DNA of 64,000 nt, taken from positions 1,127,582-1,191,581 of the forward strand of contig FO203512.1 of NCBI GenBank assembly GCA_000967895.1, read 5' to 3'. The notes under the pieces were generated by a model that saw nothing but the letters and a program-made list of their open reading frames with translations, was not told the DNA's origin and made no database searches. The stretch comes from Oleispira antarctica RB-8 (GTDB taxonomy: Bacteria; Pseudomonadota; Gammaproteobacteria; Pseudomonadales; Oceanobacteraceae). Of the stretch, positions 36,985-43,973 are shown piece after piece. Position numbers and translations under genes: made by a program. Each line of letters starts with the position of its first letter. Position 1 is the stretch's first letter.

Positions 36985-37554
36985 CTAAATTATTTCAATA
37001 TGAAGTAAGAACTCTAAGAAATTATTTGCTGCTGGAAACACATCAGATTCTGCAGTATCTGCATAAACAACTTTAGGGTCTGTTGCACTCTCACTAAAAT
37101 CTAAGCACATCGCTGATCCATTTATAGAATATATTGGTAAGAGCTTTAATTTACTCGCGGTTAGATCGTGATCTGAATCGTCTTCATAATTATAGTAATA
37201 CGCGAATTCGGCAACGAATGCAGTGGAGTGATCTTGAATATCTTCAATGCCTTCCATTATTGGATGCTGTTCAAAGCGACCACCCATAACAGTAGTAGAG
37301 CTAAAGCATACGGTCTCTCCTGGGTGATCAACTACCTCAGGCTCATCCCCACCAGTTAGTTGAATAAATTGGAGATAAAAATCTGGTATTGTTATTCCAG
37401 ATATTTCTTCCATGTTTTTTAGTTCTTTCTTATTAAGTGGAGTCTCGCGTTCGGTCCAGCGAATGAAAGATAAAAGAGACTGTTCGGTATCGATCTCTTC
37501 TCCATCTTTTTTAATAATAAGCTTACCGTTTTCTAAGCTAAATTGAAGTTCCAT
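36985..37554 (-). CDS. SMI1/KNR4-like (SUKH) protein
   Basis: The 189-residue cytoplasmic protein shows the SUKH pattern: ELKNMEEISGITIPDFYLQFIQLTGG near the N-terminus, then LLPIYSINGSAMCLDFSE and a C-terminal FLEFLLHIEII helix. Bacterial SUKH proteins are often immunity proteins to contact-dependent or polymorphic toxins, or regulatory adaptors. No toxin is encoded next to it. A purine-rich AAGGAAGAG precedes the start. It lies 56 bp after the 428-residue unknown gene on the same strand, so the two may be co-transcribed. Family call is moderate. Confidence 0.6.
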   Translation of the reverse strand: MELQFSLENGKLIIKKDGEEIDTEQSLLSFIRWTERETPLNKKELKNMEEISGITIPDFYLQFIQLTGGDEPEVVDHPGETVCFSSTTVMGGRFEQHPIMEGIEDIQDHSTAFVAEFAYYYNYEDDSDHDLTASKLKLLPIYSINGSAMCLDFSESATDPKVVYADTAESDVFPAANNFLEFLLHIEII

Positions 37555-37610
37555 CTTTAGTTCTCTTCCTTTATGTTATGTTCGATTTATAGATGATTTT
37601 TATAGAAAAT

Positions 37611-38897
37611 TTATGTACGGTCGAATATTGATTCATCAATATCGTGACGTTTAGCAAGATCAATGATTTGTTTTTCTACTGGGTCAAAGTCTAGAATTTT
37701 GTATTGGTTTATTAGGCTTATGTAATATTCTAGATCGTCTTTATTTATACGTGCGAGCCAATAAGTAAGATATAGCCCAAAAGGGAGTTCCAAATGAATA
37801 ACATTAAACGAGTGCTCCTTATTCACTTCGATAAGGATAGAAACTAATTTTCTAGTGATTTTATGTAGCTCAGAATTTTTTGAGACGATTAAACCTAATT
37901 GATCTTCAGATACATAAGATTGTTCTATGAGAAAAATTGTTTTTTCAATAGAAGTGTAACCTACTGCTTCTGGATTTATACCTATCGTGTTTTTAACATA
38001 TTCTAAGCTATTAATTATGGCTTCAAATATATCAGGAATTGATTTTAAGCTAAGTAGTTCAAATCGCCACTCGACCGACGGAAACAAATCTCCGTACTCT
38101 GAAGGTCGTGAGTACGTACTCCATGTAATATTGTGATTTTGTGTTTTTTTGAGCTCAGAAATAGTGAATTGCTGACCTTTTCGAATTAAACGATTAACCA
38201 ATTGTTCATTCGTGAAAAAATAAGATAAGCAATTTTTTAGGTTTTCAGGATCTAGATCATTAGGTTCTAATGCAGCTTTATCTTCTAGCTCTGCTGTGCA
38301 CAAACTCTGCTTACAGAGGGCTTTAAAAAATTCTCCATGTTCAAAAAATACAGGTTGTGATTCAATGATTTTTTTTGAGAAGGCGTTAACTAGACTAGTA
38401 GTGTGACTTCCATTTTTAGCAATTGATATGCCGAGTAATCGTTGAATATCTTTAGTCATTTCATATTTTTTAATGATCTCTAAAATATGTTTCTCATCTA
38501 ACACATCATGGTTCTCAATGAGGTTATTATATGATTCTATATTTTTGATATCTTTTAAAGCTAACTTAAAGGCAATTTCTTCGCCAAAAGTAGGATTACT
38601 GCCTGAATAAAGAATCACATTTTGTTTGTTCTGAAATTTAGCAATTGATTGAATCAATTCAATTGCAGGTTGCTCTAGATTATTTTCTGCATCGAATACT
38701 ATTCTTGCTAATGCCGCTTCTGGCAATGGAGCGCCCATTAAGACGATAGCAATTTCATTAAAAAGCAGTGCCTTTCCATTGTCATCGAGTTTTGGGATTT
38801 CAGCTATGTTATTAAATTTTTCGGCAAGTTGCTCAAATAGAGTTTTGAAGTCTTCTTCCTGATCAGCCATCAGGTAACAAATAGTGCGGAGTTCCAT
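37611..38897 (-). CDS. Hypothetical protein of 428 residues
   Basis: I do not recognise this protein. It is acidic, mostly helical in appearance (long runs of amphipathic sequence, such as DLDPENLKNCLSYFFTNEQLVNRLI), with no signal peptide, membrane segment or catalytic motif. A helical-repeat scaffold would fit. AAAGGA lies 5 bp before ATG 38897, supporting the start; an in-frame ATG at 38870 is possible. It is AT-rich compared with the core genes and lies between a SUKH-like gene and the tRNA-Met insertion, suggesting accessory DNA. Confidence 0.6.
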   Translation of the reverse strand: MELRTICYLMADQEEDFKTLFEQLAEKFNNIAEIPKLDDNGKALLFNEIAIVLMGAPLPEAALARIVFDAENNLEQPAIELIQSIAKFQNKQNVILYSGSNPTFGEEIAFKLALKDIKNIESYNNLIENHDVLDEKHILEIIKKYEMTKDIQRLLGISIAKNGSHTTSLVNAFSKKIIESQPVFFEHGEFFKALCKQSLCTAELEDKAALEPNDLDPENLKNCLSYFFTNEQLVNRLIRKGQQFTISELKKTQNHNITWSTYSRPSEYGDLFPSVEWRFELLSLKSIPDIFEAIINSLEYVKNTIGINPEAVGYTSIEKTIFLIEQSYVSEDQLGLIVSKNSELHKITRKLVSILIEVNKEHSFNVIHLELPFGLYLTYWLARINKDDLEYYISLINQYKILDFDPVEKQIIDLAKRHDIDESIFDRT

Positions 38898-38982: not shown

Positions 38983-39019
38983 AAAAAAACCCGCTAATGA
39001 TCACTCATTATCGGGTTTT
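38983..39019 (-). terminator. Terminator probably ancestral to the tRNA-Met gene
   Basis: AACCCGCTAATGA and TCATTATCGGGTT form a 13-bp stem with one mismatch and a TCAC loop. On the minus strand a run of seven T follows. It begins about 3 bp outside the distal att copy (39022). Before the element inserted it would have lain 7 nt after the tRNA CCA. Confidence 0.7.
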
Positions 39020-39021
39020 AG

Positions 39022-39040
39022 AATTTGGTAGCTATGGGCA
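39022..39040. repeat. Distal att copy of the element
   Basis: AATTTGGTAGCTATGGGCA is identical to 43628-43646. The next ten bases differ at only two positions from the tRNA gene, then similarity stops. It contains the tRNA acceptor end and CCA but no complete tRNA. Confidence 0.85.
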
Positions 39041-39102
39041 AACCTGAAATGAGTACCTAAGTCTTTGATTTTAAAGAATTTAATTATATGGTATTTCTTC
39101 GA

Positions 39103-39123
39103 TGTTACATCTAGTGTTACATA
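39103..39123 (+). repeat. Arm-type repeats at the left end of the element
   Basis: TGTTACAT occurs twice, at 39103-39110 and 39115-39122, joined by CTAG. TGTTACATCTAGTGT here is repeated exactly at 43489-43503 near the other end. Paired repeats of this kind near both att sites are typical of recombinase arm-binding or excisionase sites. Confidence 0.55.
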
Positions 39124-39329
39124 AAATGTTTGGTGCTTTCTTTAATAAATCCAAAAACATATAAAAAAATGTCAGGTTTTGCTAGGTTTTAAAGATTAAA
39201 GCTAAATCGTTATTACCTCAACCTTCGGATAACTTAGGATTCAATGTTGAGTATTGTTAAGGTTAGACCAAAGTTATTTAGCATTTTATTACGGTAAGGC
39301 AGCGGTGATATTAGGGCTATGGTTTAAAG

Positions 39330-39614
39330 GATGATTTTTCTGGGGTCTAGAGCGGTTATATTCAGGCGTGGTCTTGCCGTTTAATTGCCGTCTTTTGGTT
39401 TGATTGAAATCTTAGGGTAAACATAGGGTTGTTGTAATCTTGTTGCGACCCTTGTGGTTATCTTGGGGTCAGGTATTCAAACCCTCGCCCTTATCTCGCC
39501 CACCCCCTAATCGCCCCTCTCTTTTTTATAGCGTACGGAAACCGCGAATCATTGACTAAACCTTGAGCCAAAGCCTTACCGATATCTTACCGTATTGACC
39601 CCAGAAAAATCATC
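39330..39614. repeat. 18-bp inverted repeat spanning a 249-bp non-coding segment
   Basis: GATGATTTTTCTGGGGTC (39330-39347) is repeated exactly inverted at 39597-39614. Nearby are opposed TTACGGTAAGGC (39289-39300) and GCCTTACC/CTTACCGTA (39574-39595). No coding potential is seen inside. It could be a replication origin for the adjacent Rep-like gene or a small non-autonomous insertion. I see no target-site duplication to decide. Confidence 0.55.
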
Positions 39615-39758
39615 TTGCTGGTGGGTTACTAACTTTATATTTTTTGGACGCGTTAAGACAATGGCTTATCTTACATCGCAATACCTCGCACGTTGATACT
39701 TGTCGCAAAACAATCGCCCTAATATAGCCCTAATTCATCAAGCATGGCTAGCTTGTAG

Positions 39759-40349
39759 CTATGTGATAGCTAGCGTTACTTTCTCCTGCCTATTCCTAAT
39801 TCTACTGCGGCCAAAGTTTTTGGCTTGAGCGGGCTTGTAACCCTTGCCACGGCCTTTAGCTAAGTAAGATATGTGATAGATGGCATTTTGTAAGGCTGTG
39901 TGATCATCTCGGGTTAGGCGGTGGTAGTTTACCCAATGAAGTGATCCAGAGTAATAAACCTCCCAGTATTTCTTTGCCGCATCCATAACGTGGTGCGAGT
40001 GTTGAACCTTATTGCCGTCTAGCAATATAAAGCAGTGGTAGTGCTGCTTTTTGGCCTTTTCTAGCTCTCTTGCCCAAGCATAACCAAAACGATTAAGTTT
40101 GTACTTCTGCTTAATGTGCTTCGACAAGCGGCTAATGAATTTAGAAACATGTTCGCTATTATCTTTAGGTGTAGGTTGGCGTAGGTCAAAGCGTATCAAT
40201 AAAACCTTGTTGTGATGGCTTAGCATAGCTTCTACTTGATCTAATATACCTTTCATCGTGTGAGTATATGTACCTGTCACTTTAGAATTAATAAACCAAG
40301 TTTGCCCGTTGTGAGTTATCGCCTTGCTTCGTGTTATGTGTGCGCTCAT
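39759..40349 (-). CDS. Inovirus Gp2/YagK-YfjJ-like protein, putative rolling-circle replication initiator
   Basis: The 196-residue basic protein resembles the YagK/YfjJ C-terminal or inovirus Gp2 family of phage satellites. It shows KKQHYHCFILLDG, an HxH motif on a hydrophobic strand as in HUH nucleases, and downstream YHISY, a YxxxY arrangement like the paired tyrosines of some Rep proteins. It ends with a basic tail. It overlaps the preceding small membrane gene by 4 bp and lies next to a non-coding region with inverted repeats, a plausible origin. Nuclease function is inference from motifs. Confidence 0.7.
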   Translation of the reverse strand: MSAHITRSKAITHNGQTWFINSKVTGTYTHTMKGILDQVEAMLSHHNKVLLIRFDLRQPTPKDNSEHVSKFISRLSKHIKQKYKLNRFGYAWARELEKAKKQHYHCFILLDGNKVQHSHHVMDAAKKYWEVYYSGSLHWVNYHRLTRDDHTALQNAIYHISYLAKGRGKGYKPAQAKNFGRSRIRNRQEKVTLAIT

Positions 40350-40603
40350 TGTGAAGTAATAAGCCCTATTGAATAGATAAAGACTAGAGATAAAAAGCCT
40401 ATAGATATTATTAAAGACCTAGCGAGGAAAAGAGGGTGATCTATTAGAAATCCATTATATTTCAATGGCTTATGCGGCTCGTTGTAGTTATTTTCAGGGT
40501 AGAAAACCCGCAAATGTCGTCCTTTAACGTTTACGCTATATAGGCCGTGGGCTATAAGGTAAGTGACCGCTAACGGAAAAGTGATGGATTGGGCTGGATT
40601 CAT
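40346..40603 (-). CDS. Small membrane protein of the integrative element
   Basis: The 85-residue protein has a soluble N-terminal part (YLIAHGLYSVNVKGRHLRVFYP) and one strong C-terminal membrane helix (about residues 60-82). It overlaps the Rep-like gene start (ATGA), so the two are translationally coupled. I do not recognise the family. No good ribosome site precedes it. Confidence 0.55.
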   Translation of the reverse strand: MNPAQSITFPLAVTYLIAHGLYSVNVKGRHLRVFYPENNYNEPHKPLKYNGFLIDHPLFLARSLIISIGFLSLVFIYSIGLITSQ

Positions 40604-40623
40604 TGTTATATACTCGGGGTGTT

Positions 40624-40698
40624 GCTGGTGGTGGTATCCGCCAAAGATTTGCCACCAGCCGTGTTAGGTAAGCCCGCTTAGAAAAGCTCTAGGCGGGT
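40624..40698. other. Two consecutive hairpins inside the element operon
   Basis: GCTGGTGG/CCACCAGC (arms at 40624-40631 and 40652-40659) is followed by AAGCCCGCTTAGA paired with TCTAGGCGGGTT (about 40670-40698). Neither has a T run on the operon strand, so they are not clear terminators. They may set mRNA processing, attenuation or a single-strand origin. Confidence 0.45.
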
Positions 40699-41123
40699 TA
40701 ATTTTTCTTTTTAAGTGGAAGCTTCAGCTGAGGACTAAAAAGAGATTCAGCTTCTTGCAATGCTTCTATTGATTCGAATAGTCTATTTGCTCCTCCTTGA
40801 TTGCCGTCCTTTTGTTCTTTGAGCAAAGTTAAAAATCTTTCCGTTCTAGCTTGTTTATCAAGTTCTGGGTTACTGCTTAAGTGCCTTGGATCTATCTTAT
40901 AGAAAGCTTCATTACTTCCTTCGATACCAACATTAATAATATTCCAATAGTTGTGAGTATCATTCATCAAACTTTGTAACCCTGACCGTGGGTTTTTACC
41001 GCCTAAACCTATGGCTAGCTCGGAAGTTTTTTTATTGCCTTCTAGTAGCATTAAAAGGACTGAATGAGCTTGAGTTTCAAGTCTTGGGATTGCAGAGCAA
41101 GGGAAGCCAATTAATGAATTCAT
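40698..41123 (-). CDS. Hypothetical protein of the integrative element
   Basis: The 141-residue soluble protein has GKNPRSGLQSLMNDTHNYWNIINVG and AFYKIDPRHLS, and a basic tail ending in KKKN. Its N-terminal half resembles a winged-helix fold (TQAHSVLLMLLEGNKKTSELA), and similar proteins occur beside AlpA genes in Pseudomonas elements. Its stop is separated by two hairpins from the next gene. It starts on the last base of the AlpA gene. Function unknown. Confidence 0.6.
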   Translation of the reverse strand: MNSLIGFPCSAIPRLETQAHSVLLMLLEGNKKTSELAIGLGGKNPRSGLQSLMNDTHNYWNIINVGIEGSNEAFYKIDPRHLSSNPELDKQARTERFLTLLKEQKDGNQGGANRLFESIEALQEAESLFSPQLKLPLKKKN

Positions 41124-41377
41124 TACGCCACCGCCTTGAACTGCTTACGGGCTTCAACAAGGGTTTTAACTAGATGCTTTATTTCTTCTTGGCTTTGTCC
41201 TTGAATCATCGCTGCTAGTACGGCTTCGTTTTCAGTCGATAACCAAAAAACCGCACGTACTCCTAATTGAATAGGCTTAGGGAATAAACCGTTTTCAATT
41301 TTAGAGTACAGATTGCTCCTGCTAATTTGAAGAAGTTCTAGGACGGCAGGTCGACGCACGATCTTGGGATGGTTCAT
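41123..41377 (-). CDS. AlpA family phage-type regulator
   Basis: The 84-residue helix-turn-helix protein has VRRPAVLELLQISRSNLYSKIENGLFPKPIQLG, the AlpA/excisionase signature that inserts a wing residue pattern into the DNA. In P4-like elements AlpA activates the integrase and controls excision. It has no strong ribosome site apart from AGAGAAC. Two matching palindromes lie 66 bp upstream. Its stop overlaps the next start by one base. Confidence 0.85.
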   Translation of the reverse strand: MNHPKIVRRPAVLELLQISRSNLYSKIENGLFPKPIQLGVRAVFWLSTENEAVLAAMIQGQSQEEIKHLVKTLVEARKQFKAVA

Positions 41378-41442
41378 AGTGAAGTTCTCTTTCGTTCGTT
41401 AGTGATTGAAGAGGCACTTTAGCAATGAGGTAAAGAATAGGG

Positions 41443-41492
41443 TGGCCAGCCAAAAAGCAGTTTGGCTATAAGGGAATTAGTGTGGCTAGCCA
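41443..41492. promoter_or_regulatory. Paired palindromic sites upstream of alpA
   Basis: TGGCCAGCCA (41443-41452) and the perfect palindrome TGGCTAGCCA (41483-41492) lie 40 bp apart, each inside GTGGCyAGCCAA. Spacing of about four helical turns suggests cooperative binding by one regulator, perhaps AlpA itself. Confidence 0.5.
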
Positions 41493-41507
41493 ATAAATAC
41501 CTTTGAT

Positions 41508-42224
41508 TTACTTGGTTTTTTTCTCTTTTTGAAGCCATGCGGTCTCAATATCTTTTGGGATGTTTCTTTCTAAATTTGATAAACCATCACGCCCTATACC
41601 AAGTTCATCAGCCATGTCTTGAACTGCTTTTGCTATTTGGCTCTTATTAATAAAACCATTGCGATTAAACGCTTGTGACTTTTTAGCTAGCATATAGGCC
41701 ATAATTCCAGTGGCCTTTAAAAGCTCCTCCACTTTCATTCCTTGTAACTTGGCTGGGGCTGGGGCTGGGTTTTCGGTTGACTCGGAATCATCTTCAATAA
41801 AAGGATTTAAAAGCTTGGCTTTCTCTGTTTGACCTAAAGCTAAAAACCATTGAATGGCACTTTCTCGACTGACGGTAGACAAATTAGGGTTTATGCGACC
41901 CTCTTCATCAGGAACCCTAGTCGCTACTATTAGATGAGTGTGGGCAAAAACTCGCTCATCAACATCATTACGATGACAGGGATCTACTAGCGCAATCTCA
42001 TCTATCAACGCCTCACAAATTTGCTTGGCTTCCATTACATAGGCAGCTTCATAAACCCCTGCTATATCTAATATTAGCTGGTTTATAGTCTTCCTCCTAT
42101 CAAGCCCCGTAACAGTAAGTGCTATTTCTTCAGCGGTAAGGCTTCTTTTCCATTTCATAATTCTTCCCCAGTTTGGCATCCTATCTATTAGTGCTAGCTT
42201 GTCTTTTAGTCTTTGCTCATTCAT
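41508..42224 (-). CDS. Hypothetical protein of the integrative element, integrase-linked
   Basis: The 238-residue protein starts inside the integrase stop (ATGA overlap at 42221-42224), so it is co-translated with it. Sequence is helical and charged with a proline-rich linker (PAPAPAK near 160) and a C-terminal SQIAKAVQDMADELGIGRDGLSNLERNIP that resembles a DNA-binding end. Not recognised. Coupling to integrase suggests a role in recombination or its control. Confidence 0.6.
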   Translation of the reverse strand: MNEQRLKDKLALIDRMPNWGRIMKWKRSLTAEEIALTVTGLDRRKTINQLILDIAGVYEAAYVMEAKQICEALIDEIALVDPCHRNDVDERVFAHTHLIVATRVPDEEGRINPNLSTVSRESAIQWFLALGQTEKAKLLNPFIEDDSESTENPAPAPAKLQGMKVEELLKATGIMAYMLAKKSQAFNRNGFINKSQIAKAVQDMADELGIGRDGLSNLERNIPKDIETAWLQKEKKTK

Positions 42225-43456
42225 GCCTGATCCCTCATAAGCTTAACCACGTTGTCATCATTTTTGTTCTTGCCTTCTATCTCATCAGACCACCAGCACA
42301 TCATTACCCTACGTTTCTCAAGATACTGGGCGCGGTTATAAGCGGCTCTTATTTCGTTTTTGTCTGTGTGGGCTAATGCTGCTTCGATAACATCAGGATT
42401 AAATTCGTGTTCGTTTAATGTGGTGCTGGCAAGTGCGCGTAAACCATGGGCTACCAATCGGCCACCATAGCCCATGCGCTTCAATGCCATGTTTGCGGTT
42501 TGTGTATTGCGGTGCTGGCCTTTCTTCATGTCAGAAGGGAATAGGTATTCGCTATCAATACTATGAGGTCTGATTATTTCTAATAGCTCTAAAGTCTGCG
42601 GGCTTAGCGGGATAGTGTGAGGGCGCTTCATCTTCATTCTTTCAGCGGGAATATTCCAAAGCTTTGCTTCTAGGTCTATCTCTTCCCAGCGCGCTCCAGC
42701 GGTTTCACTAGGGCGGCTCATTGTGTGAAGCTGCCATTCAATCATTACGCGGGTTAGTAGCTGTATGTTGGCGTATGACAGGGCTTTCATTAGTGCGGGT
42801 AGTTCTTTTGGCTCTAGTGTGAGCTGGTGGCGCTTCTTTGGTGATTCAAAAGCCTTTGTGATGTTGGCCAGTGGGTTATGGTGAATAATCCCCGTATTGA
42901 CCGCAAACGTCATAATCTGATTAATGGCTTGGGTAACACGTTTAATCATATCCAACTTGCCAGCTTCGGCCAGTGGCTTGAGCACTTCAATGGTTTGGCT
43001 AGCTTTAATCTTGTGAATAGGGAACTTACCCAATTTTGGCAGTATGTGAAGTTCCAAGGCTCTGAATATCTTTTGGCTGTAACTTGCGCTTACGCTGGTT
43101 TTCTTCACCTCGTGCCATTGTTTGGCTACATGCTCAAGGGTGTTTAAGTGGGCAAGCTCATTCTTTTGGCGTTGTTCGGCTTTGTGTTCTTGTGGGTCGA
43201 TGTTGTCGGCCAGCAATATAAGGGCTTCGGTTCGCAGTTTTCGCGCACTGGCTAGGCTTACTTCTGGATAACTACCAAACCCTAAGTTGGTTCTTTTTTT
43301 TGTGTATGGGCGCTGGTAGGTAAAGATCCAAGCCTTTGAACCACTGGGCTTAATTCTAAGGGATAGCTTTTGACCATCGGCAAGGTTGTATTCCTTGTCT
43401 TTGGGCTTAGCATTCTTAATTTGAGAGCTGTTTAGCGGTGTTGGTATCTTAGCCAT
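42221..43456 (-). CDS. int: Tyrosine recombinase (phage-type integrase) with DUF4102 domain
   Basis: The 411-residue site-specific recombinase has the N-terminal DUF4102 region (AKIPTPLNSSQIKNAKPKDKEYNLADGQKLSL), a SAM-like core domain and the catalytic set: Arg in MSRPSETAGARW, HGLRALASTTL, and the nucleophile region AAYNRAQYLEKRR. It is of the P4/CP4-57 group that uses tRNA 3' ends. The 175 bp between it and the tRNA carries arm-like repeats. It is full length, so it is probably active. Confidence 0.93.
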   Translation of the reverse strand: MAKIPTPLNSSQIKNAKPKDKEYNLADGQKLSLRIKPSGSKAWIFTYQRPYTKKRTNLGFGSYPEVSLASARKLRTEALILLADNIDPQEHKAEQRQKNELAHLNTLEHVAKQWHEVKKTSVSASYSQKIFRALELHILPKLGKFPIHKIKASQTIEVLKPLAEAGKLDMIKRVTQAINQIMTFAVNTGIIHHNPLANITKAFESPKKRHQLTLEPKELPALMKALSYANIQLLTRVMIEWQLHTMSRPSETAGARWEEIDLEAKLWNIPAERMKMKRPHTIPLSPQTLELLEIIRPHSIDSEYLFPSDMKKGQHRNTQTANMALKRMGYGGRLVAHGLRALASTTLNEHEFNPDVIEAALAHTDKNEIRAAYNRAQYLEKRRVMMCWWSDEIEGKNKNDDNVVKLMRDQA

Positions 43457-43503
43457 GATGTAACATCCATTTACTGGTTTGAACTCGGTGTTACATCTAG
43501 TGT
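43457..43503. repeat. Arm-type repeats at the right end of the element
   Basis: ATGTAACATCC (43457-43467, the reverse of TGTTACAT) abuts the integrase start, and TGTTACATCTAGTGT at 43489-43503 repeats 39103-39117 exactly. Their position inside the integrase promoter region suggests that binding would also control int. Confidence 0.5.
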
Positions 43504-43594
43504 CGCATTAAAAGCAGGAATGTAAAAGAACGCTTAGAACGCTATAGGCCCATGAATAGGGCTGTAGGCCGCATGGTACGGTTCTTACAGGCAT

Positions 43595-43620
43595 AAAAAA
43601 GGACGCTATAAAGCGTCCTG
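43595..43620 (-). terminator. Element-supplied terminator for tRNA-Met
   Basis: AGGACGCT and AGCGTCCT form an 8-bp stem with an ATAA loop. Read on the minus strand it ends in six T. It starts 12 nt past the tRNA CCA but lies inside the element, replacing the displaced terminator at 38983. Confidence 0.8.
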
Positions 43621-43627
43621 ATTTAGT

Positions 43628-43646
43628 AATTTGGTAGCTATGGGCA
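43628..43646. repeat. tRNA-side att copy of the element
   Basis: AATTTGGTAGCTATGGGCA covers the last 15 bases of the tRNA gene (acceptor strand and CCA) plus four bases outside. It is identical to 39022-39040. Confidence 0.85.
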
Positions 43647-43708
43647 GACTTGAACTGCCGACCCCAGCATTATGAATGCTGTGCTCTAACCAACTGAGCT
43701 ACATAGCT
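43632..43708 (-). tRNA. tRNA-Met (CAT), elongator type
   Basis: The 77-nt gene folds into a standard cloverleaf. Acceptor AGCTATG pairs with CATAGCT, discriminator A and encoded CCA follow, the D arm is TAGCTCAGTTGGTTAGAGC, the anticodon stem CAGCA/TGCTG surrounds loop TTCATAA (anticodon CAT), and the T arm is present. The anticodon arm and context resemble elongator tRNA-Met of E. coli more than initiator (which has three G-C pairs). A minor tRNA-Ile(CAT) cannot be fully excluded. The 3' end is the element attachment site. Confidence 0.92.
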
Positions 43709-43747: not shown

Positions 43748-43775
43748 ATTATGTCACTATTTTAATTTTCGTCAA
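43748..43775 (-). promoter_or_regulatory. Promoter of tRNA-Met
   Basis: On the minus strand TTGACG (-35, at 43770-43775) and CATAAT (-10, at 43748-43753) are 16 bp apart, followed by GC-rich CGCGCC. That discriminator is typical of stable RNA promoters under stringent control. It predicts a leader of roughly 33 nt. Confidence 0.75.
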
Positions 43776-43924
43776 GCAATTTTCTTAGATTATTTCAATT
43801 ATTTGGCTATCTTTTCAAGGGCTTAGGTTTTCCATTACTTTCCCCCGTGAGTGCTTAGTCTCAAGTAGGGTCGCGAGTCAGAATAGTCACTTATTTGATG
43901 GCTGCTATTAAAATCTACAGGCAT

Positions 43925-43973
43925 AAAAAAAGCGCTCTATTTACCTATTATTAGGTCGATAGAGCGCTTTTTT
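43925..43973 (-). terminator. Terminator after cysN
   Basis: AAAAAAGCGCTCTAT and ATAGAGCGCTTTTTT are exactly complementary with an 18-nt loop. It lies 35 bp after the cysN stop and functions for minus-strand transcripts. The rest of the 300-bp gap between it and the tRNA holds the tRNA promoter and little else that I can see. Confidence 0.85.

What the first reader, a model, noticed from the sequence alone, without database searches (positions are those of the whole stretch)
38983..43708. Element insertion displaced the tRNA-Met terminator and supplied a new one
The sequence shows a 19-bp direct repeat at 39022-39040 and 43628-43646. A terminator directly outside the distal copy (38983-39019) fits the tRNA strand. 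A different terminator lies inside the element next to the tRNA. Removing 39022-43627 would put the first hairpin about 7 nt after the tRNA CCA. Insertion therefore appears to have preserved both tRNA end and transcription stop.
Basis: partly seen in the sequence, partly recalled or inferred. Interest (0 to 1): 0.75.

Follow-up and report, generated by a model that had tools for sequence, protein, structure and literature searches.

The report
Inserted element brings replacement tRNA terminator
A small mobile DNA element inserted at the end of a bacterial tRNA gene pushed that gene's transcription stop signal 4.6 kb away but carries its own stop signal to take its place, and many related elements appear to do the same.

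Summary
A 19-bp repeat (39022-39040/43628-43646) brackets a 4.6-kb integrase/AlpA/Rep-like element in tRNA-Met; a terminator on the tRNA strand lies beyond the distal copy and another just inside the element. Displacement plus replacement is real.

It recurs. Of 92 tRNA/tmRNA-adjacent integrases, 48 have an intrinsic terminator within 70 nt (shuffles 4-9); in a second, named set 50 of 59 (shuffles 0-4). This element's hairpin belongs to a family with 11-12-nt spacing, mostly on tmRNA elements. Three of five viral loci looked at carry the tmRNA end plus terminator without a tmRNA gene, as in attP.

Exceptions exist: a tRNA-Phe element in the same genome supplies none although relatives' tRNA-Phe has one. 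Terminator displacement by ICEKp1 is published; there int is read from the tRNA promoter. I did not find terminator replacement in print. Function is inferred; no RNA data.

The parts
43632..43708 (-). tRNA-Met (CAT), integration target, 3' end rebuilt by the element copy
43748..43775 (-). promoter-like site TTGACG-16-CATAAT with TG, upstream of the tRNA (consensus match only; the scan found no excess over shuffles)
43628..43646 (.). attL core, 19-bp direct repeat
43595..43619 (-). element-borne intrinsic terminator: 8-bp stem AGGACGCT/AGCGTCCT, 4-nt loop, then a T run; stem starts 12 nt after the tRNA CCA
   Evidence: related hairpins
43489..43503 (+). putative integrase arm-type site TGTTACATCTAGTGT, int side
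   Evidence: (D2); role inferred
42221..43456 (-). tyrosine integrase, 411 aa, PRK09692 type (arm-binding, core-binding and catalytic domains)
41508..42224 (-). 238-aa protein of unknown family overlapping int by 4 nt (ATGA)
   Evidence: no family above cut-off
41123..41377 (-). AlpA-family regulator/excisionase
40698..41123 (-). 141-aa ORF, no family match
40346..40603 (-). 85-aa ORF, no family match
39759..40349 (-). YagK/YfjJ C-terminal domain protein with REP_ORF2-G2P match, probable replication initiator
   Evidence: function inferred from family name
39290..39725 (.). non-coding region with nested long inverted repeats (39330-39347/39597-39614 perfect), possible origin
   Evidence: I1, I2, I5; role inferred
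39103..39117 (+). second copy of the putative arm-type site, distal side
39022..39040 (.). attR core, distal copy of the direct repeat
38983..39019 (-). displaced ancestral tRNA-Met terminator (hairpin 39019-38986 with T run to 38983); one stem mismatch relative to relatives

Best explanation
The window holds a 4.6-kb integrative element (tyrosine integrase, 4-nt-overlapping partner gene, AlpA, small ORFs, G2P/YagK-like Rep) inserted by site-specific recombination in the last 15 nt of tRNA-Met. Its attP carries a module of two parts: a copy of the tRNA 3' end, and just after it an intrinsic terminator. Integration therefore rebuilds the tRNA end and puts a new terminator 12 nt behind it, while the native terminator is pushed to the far side of the element, where it may end transcription running out of the element's last genes, which read the same way. 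Shown from sequence: displacement of the native hairpin, the element origin of the new one, its recurrence at nearly fixed spacing in related elements, and its presence in unintegrated viral genomes. Inferred: that it terminates, that it keeps the tRNA transcript normal, and that it insulates int from the tRNA promoter (the opposite of what ICEKp1 does).
For: Empty sites in two same-genus genomes carry the homologue of the 38983 hairpin next to the tRNA. G003 has a related element (int 85-86% identical) with the same two-terminator arrangement. An unrelated RT/KAP-encoding element in the same tRNA-Met in G004 also has a terminator next to the tRNA. Survey 1: 48 of 92 integrases next to a tRNA/tmRNA have a terminator ending within 70 nt, against 4-9 of 92 in ten shuffles; on the tRNA strand the count is 22 of 92 in the next 70 nt and 1-6 of 92 per 70-nt step from 140 to 630 nt. 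Survey 2: 50 of 59 against 0-4 in five shuffles. Hairpin family: every member of three supported integrase clades (5, 4 and 2 rows) keeps the hairpin at 11-12 nt although stem letters differ within each clade; on 15 aligned hairpins the covariation score is 0.496 against a shuffled mean of 0.251 (0 of 500 as high) and 0.04-0.12 for slid pairings. The tRNA-Met element shares this hairpin type with tmRNA-targeting elements, which speaks for an element origin. Klebsiella phages Kp4865-2 and Kp4866-6 and IMG/VR contig L332 carry a tmRNA 3' fragment plus terminator without a tmRNA gene upstream. ICEKp1 (PMC13023037, sections read): putting the tRNA terminator back between tRNA and int abolished the detected co-transcript, which shows what such a terminator can do.
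Against: No RNA evidence. Terminators are called by a simple energy/T-run rule. Not universal: 44 of 92 and 9 of 59 have none within 70 nt; the tRNA-Phe element in the same genome has none although four relatives' tRNA-Phe do. CP4-57 has an element terminator but none after attR. In the pair count two of five measures do not exceed shuffles (pairs with changes on both sides 5 against 3.9, reached by 105 of 500; further pair types 10 against 11.7, reached by 498 of 500), and the 15 hairpins had been picked by the caller, so their good pairing is partly built in. Many hairpins also score on the opposite strand (30 both strands, 18 tRNA strand only, 8 opposite only), and opposite-strand calls inside the int region reach 12-33 of 92 per 70-nt step from 140 nt on, so the caller is not clean in homologous coding DNA.
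Confidence: 0.72

Rival explanations
1. The terminator serves the element alone: it shields int from the tRNA promoter and, in the circle, from the element's own operon that runs through attP; keeping the tRNA transcript normal is a by-product.
For: int is downstream and on the same strand in all 93 tRNA-adjacent cases. In the window the Rep-end genes read toward attP. In ICEKp1 a terminator knock-in stopped the int co-transcript and no transconjugants were obtained.
Against: Presence follows whether the host gene has a terminator in the loci where a distal copy was found (19 both, 8 neither, 1 element only, 0 host only), which int insulation alone would not predict; but this is confounded by integrase lineage, five or more of the distal copies may be tandem elements, and the tRNA-Phe element is a host-only case outside that table.
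Confidence: 0.3
2. The hairpin is a relic of host DNA taken up with the tRNA end when attP first formed, with no present role.
For: Host terminators sit at similar distances from tRNA ends. The covariation test is not clean.
Against: The stem sequence turns over between relatives while a pairing stem is kept at the same place by every member of three integrase clades; 46 distinct hairpins among 48.
Confidence: 0.1
3. The hairpin is a DNA element of attP (integrase or host-factor site, or cruciform), not an RNA terminator.
For: Nearly fixed 11-12-nt spacing and a shared TGCCT-like tail after the T run in most of the family; spacers of the longer-offset class hold further inverted repeats by eye; many hairpins score on both strands.
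Against: The stem sequence is not conserved but pairing is, and a T run follows on the tRNA strand; other elements place the hairpin at other distances, from 4 to about 46 nt from the gene end.
Confidence: 0.12
4. Chance hairpins in A+T-rich DNA.
For: The consensus scan of the region found 7 terminator-like sites against 6.4 expected, so a single call is weak evidence.
Against: Family-wide enrichment and homology at empty sites.
Confidence: 0.01

Closest known systems
ICEKp1 terminator displacement and int promoter switching (Liu et al. 2026, PMC13023037; outline, passages and sections 20 and 25 read)
   Same: Integration at the 3' end of a tRNA displaces the tRNA's Rho-independent terminator to the far end; int lies 161 bp downstream on the same strand (175 bp here); stem-loops between tRNA and int are described as a potential terminator that attenuates the co-transcript.
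   Different: There int is expressed from the tRNA promoter as an asn-int transcript; here a compact hairpin with a T run sits 12 nt behind the tRNA, which should block that route (not tested).
PICMI satellites of Vibrionaceae (PMC10803314; passages read)
   Same: Small element, int with a 4-nt (ATGA) overlapping partner gene, alpA, short direct repeats.
   Different: No DUF3987/DUF5906 primase found in the six element ORFs; a YagK/YfjJ-G2P-like Rep instead; tRNA-Met site, not fis; no helper known.
E. coli K-12 CP4-57 at ssrA
   Same: tmRNA 3' end as target, element terminator 45 nt downstream, nearly the same hairpin as in two Klebsiella phage genomes.
   Different: No terminator after attR; target is tmRNA.
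tRNA/tmRNA genomic islands in general (3' end regenerated by attP; recalled)
   Same: Repeat identity restores the tRNA 3' end.
   Different: The terminator is replaced too, by non-homologous sequence outside the repeat.

Membership tests
tRNA-integrated element with PRK09692-type tyrosine integrase | integrase of that family with arm, core-binding and catalytic domains | tested here: met
   (NF007246 483 bits, cutoff 434)
tRNA-integrated element with PRK09692-type tyrosine integrase | direct repeat made of the tRNA 3' end, and an empty site in relatives | tested here: met
tRNA-integrated element with PRK09692-type tyrosine integrase | excision/circularisation observed | not testable with these tools
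   no reads or culture
PICMI | integrase and AlpA co-localised | tested here: met
PICMI | primase (DUF3987 / DUF5906) | tested here: not met
   no such domain in any of the six element ORFs at E up to 0.1
PICMI | integration next to fis | tested here: not met
   tRNA-Met site
PICMI | mobilised by a virulent helper phage | not testable with these tools
   needs culture and phage
ICEKp1-type int promoter switching | native tRNA terminator displaced by integration | tested here: met
ICEKp1-type int promoter switching | int co-transcribed with the tRNA from its promoter | not testable with these tools
   needs RNA; the hairpin with T run at 43619-43595 speaks against it

The most novel reading that the evidence does not exclude
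A large share of tRNA- and tmRNA-integrating elements carry a two-part repair module in attP, the gene's 3' end plus a replacement terminator kept by selection on its structure, present mainly where the target gene natively has an intrinsic terminator and mainly absent where it does not; integration is thus made neutral for the target's whole transcription unit, and int is insulated from the tRNA promoter, a strategy opposite to the read-through design of ICEKp1.
Probability: 0.48. Interest if true: 0.72.

Novelty: new variant of a known kind. Interest (0 to 1): 0.6.

Why it matters
[quoted passage not shown] What happens to the tRNA's transcription stop came up in only one paper that my searches led me to open (ICEKp1), where it is displaced and the tRNA promoter then drives int. 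If many tmRNA- and tRNA-targeting elements bring a replacement, attP must be read as a larger, selected module, integrase expression in these elements must come from elsewhere, and prophage or island annotations that stop at the tRNA repeat miss a part. Both designs seem to coexist in one genome here (tRNA-Met and tmRNA against tRNA-Phe), so the question is directly testable.

Tried and rejected
Rejected: chance repeat; the two hairpins as a duplicated host terminator (stems differ; the repeat ends 4 nt after the CCA in the window, 0 nt in G003). A strict rule 'element has a terminator exactly when the host gene has one' was considered and not kept. The pooled table is 19 both, 1 element only, 0 host only, 8 neither (Fisher p 3e-6). 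Without seven pairs whose two hairpins sit at nearly the same offset and so may be tandem elements (L065, L101, L112, L133, L134, L146, L269) it is 12/1/0/8 (p 4e-5), and with the tRNA-Phe case added as host only 12/1/1/8 (p 2e-4). The two sides were not scored alike (70 nt at the tRNA side, 100 nt at the distal side). The tRNA-Phe element of the same genome breaks the rule (4 of 5 other genus members show a terminator, the fifth ends at a contig edge), CP4-57 is element only, and terminator absence clusters on the integrase tree (19 of 86 rows, 11 changes against 17.3 in shuffles; quick tree, careful search unfinished), so integrase lineage and target are confounded. Support for the trend from other genomes at two sites whose elements lack a terminator: tRNA-Met in genus g30, no terminator in 15 of 17 read relatives, none with an integrase nearby, but matched mostly over the tRNA alone; tRNA-Leu in g50, none in 12 of 13 read loci, of which one is occupied and one is a paralogue. 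In K-12, argU, argW and thrW have none at either end; leuX has one, whose origin I did not settle.

Led nowhere: MAFFT alignment of the longer-offset hairpins slipped, so their pairs were counted by script without a slid control and are not used. The T-run comparison is biased because T runs were required for detection; one search is the fairer count. The Rep-like protein has no relatives in IMG/VR by this scan and no meaningful PDB match. The L147 search found only its own genome. Literature: in an open-licence library; six returned no paper, four papers (one opened), three (none opened). Terminator replacement was not in these listings, but subscription papers are missing.

Counts: survey 1 used the window, 27 loci and 80 of about 115 places listed (partial or lower-ranked places left out); of 106 integrase N-termini 93 had a tRNA/tmRNA within 1.2 kb, and one duplicate (L069) was dropped. 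L074 counts as without a terminator at 70 nt but has one within 100 nt. Survey 2 used 80 loci: 14 without a tRNA/tmRNA found, 7 duplicates of survey 1 dropped, 59 counted; no further identical att regions between the two sets. Of the viral hits I looked at five loci: three of 462 phage records and two IMG/VR loci, one of which (L333) has no upstream sequence.
Full report
Observation. The tRNA-Met gene runs on the minus strand and ends at 43632; the repeat covers its last 15 nt and 4 nt beyond. The element between the copies has six candidate genes, all on the minus strand: a PRK09692-type tyrosine integrase, a 238-aa gene overlapping it by ATGA, AlpA, two ORFs without family, and a YagK/YfjJ-type protein that also matches the G2P replication-protein family. 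A 15-bp sequence occurs once near each end in the same orientation (39103 and 43489), as expected for arm-type sites.

Empty site. The genus holds six genomes in the collection. In G005 and G001 the tRNA is followed after 6-9 nt by a hairpin CCCGCTAATGA...TCATTAGCGGG and a T run; no second copy of the tRNA end and no integrase-like hit is seen in the 10-11 kb read. The window's distal hairpin is the homologue with one stem mismatch. In G003 a related element of 4694 bp has the intact ancestral hairpin behind its distal copy and AGGACGCTTTTTAGCGTCCT behind the tRNA, against AGGACGCTTTATAGCGTCCT in the window. In G004 another element (6440 bp; reverse transcriptase closest to PADLOC RT_UG14, ATPase closest to PDC-S20, two adjacent ORFs matching the N-terminal and catalytic integrase domains) occupies the same tRNA with a terminator behind both copies; its distal hairpin is not the ancestral one, so that site has a longer history. 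G003's contig has the length of, and an 85% integrase as in, the 84,406-bp contig of Oleispira sp. NORP219, which I take as naming the genus; that the window is Oleispira antarctica RB-8 is my recollection of its genome size only.

How general. Among 106 integrase N-termini located in the window and the loci have a tRNA or tmRNA within 1.2 kb upstream, always on the same strand. After dropping one duplicate, 48 of 92 have a hairpin of -7 kcal/mol or better with a T run ending within 70 nt of the gene end; ten shuffles gave 4-9. On the tRNA strand the count is 22 of 92 in the next 70 nt and 1-6 of 92 in each step from 140 to 630 nt; on the opposite strand it is 38, 4 and then 12-33 of 92, the latter in homologous int sequence. 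By target: tmRNA 14/19, Ser 7/8, Leu 12/22, Phe 4/8, Met 3/7, Pro 4/9, Arg 1/14, Thr 1/2, Ala 2/2, Gly 0/1. A second set from named genomes gave 50 of 59: tmRNA 46/49, Ser 3/3, Leu 1/4, Arg 0/2, Met 0/1; five shuffles gave 0-4. Rows within each set are related, so these are not independent events.

The hairpin as an element module. In survey 2 a spacer of 11-12 nt, a stem of 8-9 bp and mostly a 4-nt loop recur in Pseudoalteromonas, Shewanella, Colwellia, Thalassotalea and others at tmRNA, and in the window and G003 at tRNA-Met. In three supported integrase clades (5, 4 and 2 rows) every member keeps it although the stem letters change. On 15 of the 18 listed (L305 with a longer stem, L252 as a copy of L047, and L321 identical to L318 left out; L254 is shifted by one base) the stem forms 91.9% of pairs; the covariation score, the cells paired and the cells changed on both sides exceed all 500 shuffles and every slid pairing, while the number of pairs changed on both sides (5; shuffled 3.9, 105 of 500 as high) and of further pair types (10; shuffled 11.7) does not exceed shuffles. 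The hairpins were picked by the caller and relatedness is not corrected for, so this is support, not proof. In three of five viral loci looked at, a tmRNA 3' fragment (identified by eye against the K-12 ssrA end) is followed directly by the terminator although no tmRNA gene is found upstream, as in attP or a tandem junction; the Klebsiella phage hairpin is nearly that of CP4-57 in K-12.

Exceptions and the host side. The G000 tRNA-Phe element has no terminator, while tRNA-Phe in G001, G002, G003 and G005 has one and no integrase-like hit nearby (G004 ends at the contig edge): there the stop was apparently displaced and not replaced. The G000 tmRNA element has one, integrase-free G005 has a different one, and G003 and G004 show a third kind of hairpin at 44 nt. 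The G003 tRNA-Arg element lacks one, and so does the same tRNA in G000 and G005, which show no integrase-like hit within 1.5 kb. Where a distal copy could be found, the two sides agree in 27 of 28 loci, with tandem elements, unequal scoring lengths and integrase lineage as confounders.

Mechanism. Recombination within the repeat exchanges everything after the tRNA end. The attP side brings tRNA end plus terminator; the attB side hands its own terminator to the far junction. In the integrated state the new terminator should end the tRNA transcript and keep it out of int. The displaced one should end transcripts leaving the element's last gene, and in the circle the element's terminator would do that job. 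These functional steps are inference. ICEKp1 gives the contrast: int driven by the tRNA promoter, attenuated by stem-loops called a potential terminator, and a knocked-in tRNA terminator abolishing the detected co-transcript, with no transconjugants obtained.

Verdict. By gene content the element is an ordinary small integrative element, PICMI-like in layout but not a PICMI by that family's primase and fis criteria. The interest lies in terminator replacement as a recurrent part of attP, which I did not find described in the searches made.

Noticed in passing
L048 9422-15229 (G004, same tRNA-Met): A 6.4-kb element with a UG14-type reverse transcriptase directly behind its tRNA-side terminator, a PDC-S20-like ATPase and two adjacent ORFs matching the two halves of an integrase; unrelated to the window element but in the same site.
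   Followed up: partly
L068 15026-16486 (G000 C1:383025-384485): A tRNA-Phe element in the same genome that apparently displaced a terminator without supplying one: a natural control beside the tRNA-Met and tmRNA elements.
   Followed up: partly
39290-39725: Nested inverted repeats (18 nt perfect, 249 nt apart, plus two more pairs) downstream of the Rep-like gene, a candidate replication origin.
   Followed up: no
43586-43600 and 43916-43930: TACAGGCATAAAAAA occurs only 4 times in the genome (0 for the reversed pattern): at the tRNA-Met element terminator, at the tmRNA element terminator, at a hairpin between cysN and the tRNA, and once elsewhere.
   Followed up: partly
38983-39019: The displaced terminator has one stem mismatch and scores -15.6 kcal/mol against -22.3 in G003; possibly relaxed selection, one case only.
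   Followed up: no
L334 1-143 (Vibrio phage H20): The record's 143-bp annotated repeat holds a tRNA-like 3' end followed after 5 nt by a strong hairpin and T run, so here the terminator may lie inside the repeat itself.
   Followed up: no
L133, L134, L112, L101, L269: The distal copy is followed by a hairpin at nearly the same offset as the tRNA-side one, as if another element of the same kind were inserted in tandem.
   Followed up: no
36985-38897 and loci L047-L050: The genes beyond the tRNA/element differ between the genomes compared by eye (a 428-aa gene and an SMI1/KNR4-type gene in the window), so the region looks like a variable spot.
   Followed up: no
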